Below are positions 25,873-26,486 of a stretch of DNA of 64,000 nucleotides, one piece after another (positions within the stretch are counted from its first letter, which is position 1; each line of letters opens with the position of its first letter). The notes below the pieces were generated by a model that worked only from the letters and a program-made list of their open reading frames with translations, made no database searches and was not told the origin of the DNA. This stretch comes from Nitrososphaera sp. GTDB lineage: Archaea > Thermoproteota > Nitrososphaeria > Nitrososphaerales > Nitrososphaeraceae. The DNA lies in assembly GCA_029263715.1 (NCBI GenBank), contig JAJUFP010000001.1:62001-126000 (forward strand), in the 5' to 3' direction. A program made the translations under genes and the position numbers.

Positions 25873-26009
25873 TTGGAAAATTCAGGAGTAAAGTACTATA
25901 TGATTACTCGGATTTTGTACAAATGAAAACTATGACGGCTTTTCGCATGATAATCTGGCCGTCAAGGCTATCCTAACTTTTTTAAATTCTGAAATGTTAA
26001 TACAAATGC

Positions 26010-26082
26010 ATAATACCCTAAGCAGGCAAGGCCCTGTCCTTGGCATGGAAGATACAGCTCCTTTGGGGCAGGGCCCTTTTCC
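26010..26082 (+). ncRNA. Candidate structured RNA, copy 1
   Basis: GGCCCTGTCCT (26030-26040) pairs with GGGGCAGGGCC (26065-26075) over 11 base pairs (two G-U) around a 24-nt loop, and a T-run follows at 26077-26080. A TATA-like TTTTTTAAATT (25977-25987) lies about 25 nt before the proposed 5' end. The stem shares its sequence plan with copy 2 at 26349, and the differences keep pairing. The strand, ends and even transcription are inferred. Confidence 0.5.
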
Positions 26083-26101
26083 ATAACTCTTTTAATTCAT
26101 A

Positions 26102-26254
26102 ATCACCTAGTATTTCTACGTCAAAACCAGAATACCGGAGGTACCGACATCCAGTACTGAAGGACAAGGAAGTAGACGGGTTGATGCGTTACTTTAATCT
26201 CAACAGTTACCTTGAACTACTGTTCTTTTTGAAGATAATACACCATGAGGGCTG
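26102..26254 (+). pseudogene. Possible decayed open frame
   Basis: A plus-strand frame of about 50 codons reads YRRYRHPVLKDKEVDGLM, then RYFNLNSYLELLFFLKII, and ends at a TGA near 26254. It has a protein-like composition but no normal start codon in its first half, and stops surround it. It may be a remnant of a lost gene or an unread coincidence. I do not recognise the family. Confidence 0.2.
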
Positions 26255-26324
26255 ACAGGTTGGTTTTCGTCAGGCAGTAACAAAGTTACTACATGTTTAA
26301 TAACTATAATGCTGTTCTATAATT

Positions 26325-26400
26325 ATAAGCCAACCATATCCCAAAACCGGTCCTGTTCTCTGGTCTCTCCACCATTGCCAAGAACAGGACCTTTCGCAAT
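26325..26400 (+). ncRNA. Candidate structured RNA, copy 2
   Basis: GGTCCTGTTCT (26349-26359) pairs perfectly with AGAACAGGACC (26381-26391), an 11-bp stem with a 21-nt loop that can itself close TGGT/ACCA (26361-26374). A TATA-like TGTTTAATAAC (26294-26304) lies about 25 nt before the proposed 5' end. The stem matches copy 1 with paired substitutions. The strand and ends are inferred. Confidence 0.5.
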
Positions 26401-26429
26401 TCAAGCCTGAGTCACGATTGAAGCACTGG

Positions 26430-26465
26430 TCAGCACGTCGTTGGAATATTTTTTCCAAGTGCTGA
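26430..26465. terminator. Long hairpin beyond the nnrD stop codon
   Basis: TCAGCAC (26430-26436) pairs with GTGCTGA (26459-26465), and inside it TTGGAA (26441-26446) pairs with TTCCAA (26453-26458) around a TATTTT loop, with a 4-nt bulge GTCG. It stands about 20 nt past the end of the nnrD gene, so it may act at the 3' end of that transcript, or may belong to the RNA region. Confidence 0.35.
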
Positions 26466-26486
26466 TAGCTCGCTTTTACACGATGA

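What the first reader, a model, noticed from the sequence alone, without database searches (positions are those of the whole stretch)
26030..26391. Two paralogous hairpins with covarying 11-bp stems in a gene-free region
Copy 1 pairs GGCCCTGTCCT (26030-26040) with GGGGCAGGGCC (26065-26075); copy 2 pairs GGTCCTGTTCT (26349-26359) with AGAACAGGACC (26381-26391). The 5' arms differ at two positions (C to T), and both changes are compensated in the 3' arm (G to A), turning C-G into T-A pairs. The two G-U pairs of copy 1 become T-A pairs. Loops are 24 and 21 nt and unrelated, each copy is preceded by a TATA-like run, and no protein gene explains them. That is what a conserved small-RNA pair or structured cis element would show.
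Basis: seen in the sequence. Interest (0 to 1): 0.68.

Follow-up and report, generated by a model that had tools for sequence, protein, structure and literature searches.

The report
Family of small hairpin RNA genes
The two hairpins look like two members of a previously undescribed family of tiny RNA genes, each with its own promoter and an 11-base-pair hairpin, scattered through soil ammonia-oxidising archaea of the genus Nitrososphaera, a group in which I found no small RNAs described in the papers searched.

Summary
In detail: both hairpins exist at the stated coordinates. Alone they are weak (copy 1 is no more stable than shuffled sequence), and two copies cannot prove covariation. The evidence comes from relatives. 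The window is from a Nitrososphaera archaeon. A degenerate pattern, then a covariance model, then promoter motifs uncovered some 16 further units: more in this genome (contigs 3, 7, 9, 10) and in five congeners. Each is an archaeal TATA promoter, usually 41-53 nt of spacer, then an 11-bp GC-rich hairpin with a variable 19-42 nt loop. Stem sequence drifts while pairing is kept: 99% of cells pair, 8 of 11 pairs show double changes. The TATA motif is strand-specific and much stronger than controls. Hairpins with G-U wobbles have the promoter on the strand where they form. In two congeners the whole promoter-plus-hairpin block (~120 bp) aligns as one unit. Best reading: a multi-copy family of ~75-90-nt small RNA genes; both window copies lie on the + strand (TATA 25978-25986 and 26294-26302). 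No transcript has been shown. Rfam has no match. Target-pairing function is inference only.

The parts
25971..25988 (+). Promoter P1 of unit 1: TCCTAACTTTTTTAAATT (BRE-like + TATA TTTTTTAAA at 25978-25986)
   Evidence: Same class of promoter 41-53 nt before hairpins in this genome's contigs 3 and 7 and in G007; position-weight search
26005..26082 (+). Predicted small RNA 1 (start inferred ~25 nt after the TATA centre; end inferred at CTTTTCC)
   Evidence: Inference from promoter spacing; no transcript data
26030..26075 (+). Hairpin copy 1, 11-bp stem with two U-G pairs, 24-nt loop
26083..26097 (+). Promoter P2: ATAACTCTTTTAATT, conserved together with the small reading frame in G007
   Evidence: 72% identical DNA block 26081-26242 in G007
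26103..26255 (+). Small conserved reading frame (..YRHPVLKDKEVDGLMRYFNLNSYLELLFFLKIIHHEG*), start codon unclear; not part of the RNA family but lies between the copies
   Evidence: Relatives in the genus; no Pfam or NCBIfam match
26294..26302 (+). TATA box of unit 2: TGTTTAATA, 55 nt before the hairpin
   Evidence: Score 7.2, within the member range 3.2-9.7; best minus-strand alternative 1.1
26324..26400 (+). Predicted small RNA 2 (ends inferred)
   Evidence: Inference from promoter spacing; no transcript data
26349..26391 (+). Hairpin copy 2, perfect 11-bp stem, 21-nt loop; can also fold on the minus strand

Best explanation
The two hairpins are two members of a multi-copy family of small RNA genes in Nitrososphaera. 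Each gene has its own BRE/TATA promoter; transcription is predicted to start about 25 nt before the hairpin and to give an RNA of roughly 75-90 nt with a short single-stranded 5' part, an 11-bp GC-rich stem and a variable, pyrimidine-rich 19-42 nt loop. SHOWN by sequence: the promoter-spacer-hairpin anatomy, its repetition, strand agreement, and pairing kept while sequence drifts. INFERRED: that they are transcribed, and their ends. SPECULATIVE: that the stem protects the RNA or binds a protein while the 5' segment and loop, which differ from copy to copy, pair with different target mRNAs, as sibling trans-acting small RNAs do.
For: Further units found in three ways: pattern plus stem check, covariance model R2 (new hits G015:2091460 E 1e-4, G007 C109 E 4e-4, G015:168173 E 1e-3, G000 C10 E 5e-3, G007 C66, G014:487054; E-values rough), and promoter motif alone (C7:27456, C9:114557; also G015:788k). 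Promoter-to-stem distance is 41-53 nt in the well-formed units. AT content peaks only at -60 to -41 (0.73-0.78), and the 9-nt TATA motif scores 112.8 against 61 on the mirror side and 71-81 in shuffles. In 12 distinct stems 99.2% of cells pair, 8 of 11 pairs have double changes, 0/500 shuffles reach this, and slid controls pair 27-58%. In A5 there are 13 G-U cells against 1 A-C cell, on the strand that carries the promoter. The descriptor finds only the targeted loci and nothing in ~660 kb of untargeted stretches. In G014/G015 the whole ~120-bp promoter+hairpin block aligns at 73-74%. Contig 3 carries three such units in tandem.
Against: No transcript data. Part of the set was chosen with criteria that favour paired stems, so the covariation figures are inflated; the units found by promoter alone are few. 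Some promoter-motif sites have no hairpin (P2, C3 10532 and 11922, several weak class-B hits). U-tracts after the hairpin are short and inconsistent, so 3' ends are uncertain. Copy 2 keeps an unexplained inverted similarity to copy 1. No target or function was tested.
Confidence: 0.66

Rival explanations
1. The hairpins are only transcript-end (terminator- or stability-type) hairpins of very short promoter-driven transcripts or leader peptides, and the RNA itself has no function of its own.
For: Copy 1, C3u1, C3u2 and G011 (minus reading) are followed by 4 U; the promoter lies close upstream.
Against: Most units lack a U-tract (G015a-c, G014, C9, C10, G007), and archaeal termination correlates with U-tracts (abstract of PMC8716108, seen). 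No reading frame is evidently shared between units (by inspection). Stem length and position are constant where a terminator would vary.
Confidence: 0.16
2. Dispersed small mobile element (MITE- or REPIN-like) carrying a promoter; the hairpins are its ends and have no regulatory role.
For: Units are scattered and lineage-specific; the nnrD-SDR spacer is 32-79 bp in six congeners but 614 bp here; the two window copies share 16/18 in inverted order.
Against: No target-site duplication was seen by eye. The hairpin is at one end of the unit, not both. Only two near-identical copies exist in the genome. Copies are strongly diverged with compensated stems. Copy 2's promoter is on the + strand.
Confidence: 0.12
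3. DNA-level palindrome: an operator or cruciform bound by a regulator.
For: GC-rich inverted repeats sit near promoters.
Against: Loops vary from 19 to 42 nt, so half-sites do not keep a fixed helical phase. Wobble positions follow the promoter-bearing strand, which DNA would not care about. The repeat lies downstream of the predicted start site.
Confidence: 0.05
4. Chance hairpins.
For: Each hairpin alone is near chance expectation.
Against: Family, consistent promoter spacing and covariation.
Confidence: 0.01

Closest known systems
Archaeal intergenic small RNAs with their own promoter (as reviewed in PMC3432209, listed, not read in full)
   Same: Intergenic, own promoter (BRE/TATA), short, stem-loop, no shared reading frame
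   Different: No transcript shown; sequence matches no Rfam family; several divergent copies per genome, some in tandem
Sibling (multi-copy) trans-acting small RNAs of bacteria (from general knowledge)
   Same: Several copies with a conserved stem and different single-stranded parts, some in tandem arrays
   Different: Archaeal promoter; no target known; the CUCC enrichment of loops is only suggestive (7 of 18, p 0.03, post hoc)
REPIN/MITE elements
   Same: Paired palindromes in intergenic DNA, one inverted similarity
   Different: Few, diverged copies; hairpin at one end only; dedicated promoter at a consistent distance

Membership tests
Archaeal small RNA gene (generic) | Own promoter on the same strand at a consistent distance | tested here: met
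   41-53 nt in the well-formed units; TATA motif 112.8 vs 61 mirror and 71-81 shuffled
Archaeal small RNA gene (generic) | Conserved RNA secondary structure with compensatory changes | tested here: met
   99.2% of cells paired, 8/11 pairs with double changes; ascertainment bias noted
Archaeal small RNA gene (generic) | Does not code for protein | tested here: inconclusive
   No shared reading frame in the units by inspection; no formal test of coding
Archaeal small RNA gene (generic) | A discrete transcript is made | not testable with these tools
   Needs RNA-seq or Northern blot
Known Rfam RNA families | Match at or above the gathering score | tested here: not met
   0 matches in the window; best sub-threshold hit 19.5 bits vs 60.2 needed
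C/D box small RNA | Box C (RUGAUGA) and box D (CUGA) | tested here: not met
   No UGAUGA in 26005-26082 or 26324-26400 (read directly); no Rfam match
MITE / REPIN | Inverted termini, target-site duplication, multiple near-identical copies | tested here: not met
   No further near-identical copies; no duplication seen by eye; inverted similarity only 16/18
Intrinsic terminator | Hairpin immediately followed by a U-run | tested here: not met
   U-run of 4 in a minority of units, absent in the rest

The most novel reading that the evidence does not exclude
A genus-wide family of sibling small RNAs in ammonia-oxidising archaea, with a constant stem and variable pyrimidine-rich loops and 5' segments, that regulates different mRNAs in trans: the first such regulator set in this lineage.
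Probability: 0.3. Interest if true: 0.75.

Novelty: new member of a known kind. Interest (0 to 1): 0.62.

Why it matters
Post-transcriptional regulation in ammonia-oxidising archaea, major soil nitrifiers, is little explored; the literature searches found no small RNA described in Nitrososphaera. Here is a concrete, multi-copy, testable set of small RNA genes, some in genomes whose sizes match the cultured species, with predicted promoters, strands and ends.

Tried and rejected
(1) Terminal inverted repeats of a mobile cassette: suggested by the 18-nt inverted similarity; dropped as main reading after the promoter evidence put copy 2 on +. (2) Covariance model R1 from the two copies: found only themselves in 70 family genomes, which would have wrongly ended the case; a two-sequence model is too narrow. 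(4) Plasmid DNA search: no match. (5) Syntenic comparison at nnrD-SDR: the spacer differs between lineages, so there is no orthologous copy to compare. (6) Promoter P2 first read as belonging to a minus-strand RNA; direction corrected because it is conserved with the small reading frame and because a site of the same class in contig 3 precedes a leaderless reading frame at TATA distance. (8) Alignment A4 held one mistyped arm and was replaced by A5.

Full report
WHAT WAS CHECKED. Taken alone they prove little. Stems of 11 bp or more that allow G-U occur 32 times in this window and 16-32 times in shuffles. Copy 1 folds no better than shuffled sequence and copy 2 does. The two copies are nevertheless related: an 18-nt stretch matches 16/18 in inverted order, which 2 of 400 shuffles of the region reach. 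Between them lies a small conserved reading frame with its own promoter, so the region is not gene-free. The window comes from a Nitrososphaera-type archaeon (related loci bear that name).

WHERE IT LIES. The hairpins sit between nnrD and a short-chain dehydrogenase gene. In six congeners these genes are 32-79 bp apart; here 614 bp. In G012 and, with contigs broken, in G007 and WS208 other genes follow nnrD. The spot therefore differs between lineages, and there is no orthologous copy for a direct comparison.

THE FIRST SEARCH FAILED AND WHY. A model of just the two copies (R1) found nothing else in 70 genomes of the family. A looser pattern with degenerate arms, followed by a check that the outer bases also pair, turned up clear hairpins: contig 9 of this genome, G004 and G011, and a 10-bp one on contig 3. 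A promoter-like motif found beside copy 1 occurs 12 times in this genome against 2 for the reversed control, four of them on contig 3. There, three tandem units each hold a promoter, ~47 nt of spacer and a hairpin. One stretch of 36 nt, stem arm plus promoter, is 86% identical between copy 1 and contig 3.

INDEPENDENT HITS. Model R2, from eight hairpins, was run on 18 genus genomes. Beyond its training set it hit G015 (three or more places), G007 (two), G014 and contig 10 here. Their surroundings had not been used to find them, yet each has a TATA-like promoter on the same strand, mostly 40-50 nt before the hairpin. G015 and G014 share GTTAATCGAGTTTTTTATA. Contigs 9 and 10 share TGTACACCWACTGRTTATA. 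G007 C66 has CCTAACTTTTTTAAATT, identical to copy 1's promoter. Searching by promoter alone in sampled stretches then exposed further hairpins whose stem sequence had drifted: contig 7 (CCTGTCCCTC/GAGGGACAGG), contig 9 (TAGGCCCACCC/GGGTGGGCCTA) and G015:788k. The promoter-to-stem distance is 41-53 nt in the well-formed units. Not every promoter-motif site has a hairpin.

STATISTICS. Twelve distinct stems: 99.2% of cells pair, 8 of 11 pairs changed on both sides, never reached in 500 shuffles, slid controls 27-58% paired. This figure is inflated because some members were chosen for pairing. Less biased support: the TATA motif upstream scores 112.8, against 61 on the mirror side and 71-81 in shuffles. 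The hairpin descriptor finds nothing in ~660 kb of untargeted stretches and 0-1 per 400 kb in shuffles. In G014/G015 the block of homology is the whole ~120-bp promoter+hairpin unit. Non-Watson-Crick cells in alignment A5 are 13 G-U to 1 A-C on the promoter-defined strand, which points to RNA rather than DNA as the selected form.

STRAND OF COPY 2. Its stem is a perfect palindrome. The inverted similarity to copy 1 would suggest the minus strand. The TATA score (7.2 on +, 1.1 on -; members 3.2-9.7) and the spacing put it on +, the strand of copy 1. I favour +; the inverted similarity stays unexplained.

HOW IT PROBABLY WORKS. Shown: gene-like units with promoter, spacer, hairpin. Inferred: transcription from about 25 nt before the stem, RNA of ~75-90 nt. 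Speculative: the constant stem stabilises the RNA or binds a protein, and the variable 5' segment and pyrimidine-rich loop pair with target mRNAs. CUCC, complementary to ribosome-binding GGAG, is in 7 of 18 loops (p 0.03, one of several motifs tried), so this is a hint only.

WHAT IS KNOWN. Rfam has no match. The papers searched hold no small RNA described from Nitrososphaera; only open-licence papers were searched. It is therefore best filed as a new family of a known kind, archaeal promoter-driven small RNAs, pending transcript evidence.

Noticed in passing
window 26103-26255 (+): Unannotated small protein family (YRxPxYxDxEVDGLMRYFxLxxYxELLxFLK), ~50-65 aa, up to several copies per genome in Nitrososphaera, no Pfam or NCBIfam match; in this window and in G007 there is no ordinary start codon after the predicted transcription start.
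   Followed up: partly
window 25873-26486: The nnrD-SDR junction differs between lineages: 32-79 bp in six species, a 614-bp spacer here, nitroreductase/DUF488-like genes in G007 and WS208 (contigs broken), another gene in G012.
   Followed up: yes
window 26430-26465: A further palindrome (TCAGCAC..TTGGAA..TTCCAA..GTGCTGA) just downstream of nnrD, possibly its transcript-end hairpin.
   Followed up: no
window 25936-25965: GACGGC..GCCGTC hairpin in the SDR upstream region, after another TTTAAAAAAGTTAGGA motif read on the minus strand.
   Followed up: no
L350 / G000:C9 near 34.4 kb: A second, even stronger hairpin (GGGTCCATCCCCC..GGGGGATGGACTC) directly follows the family hairpin.
   Followed up: no
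L345 about 1187-1400 (G000:C6 near 51 kb): CRISPR-like array with repeat GTTTGAATCGAACTATGATAGGATTGAAAG.
   Followed up: no
G000:C9, C10, C7, C3 and C1 (L350, L352, L347, L342, L340, L351): A conserved promoter word TGTACACCWACTGRTTATA, perhaps a regulator site or a TFB-specific promoter, precedes several units.
   Followed up: partly
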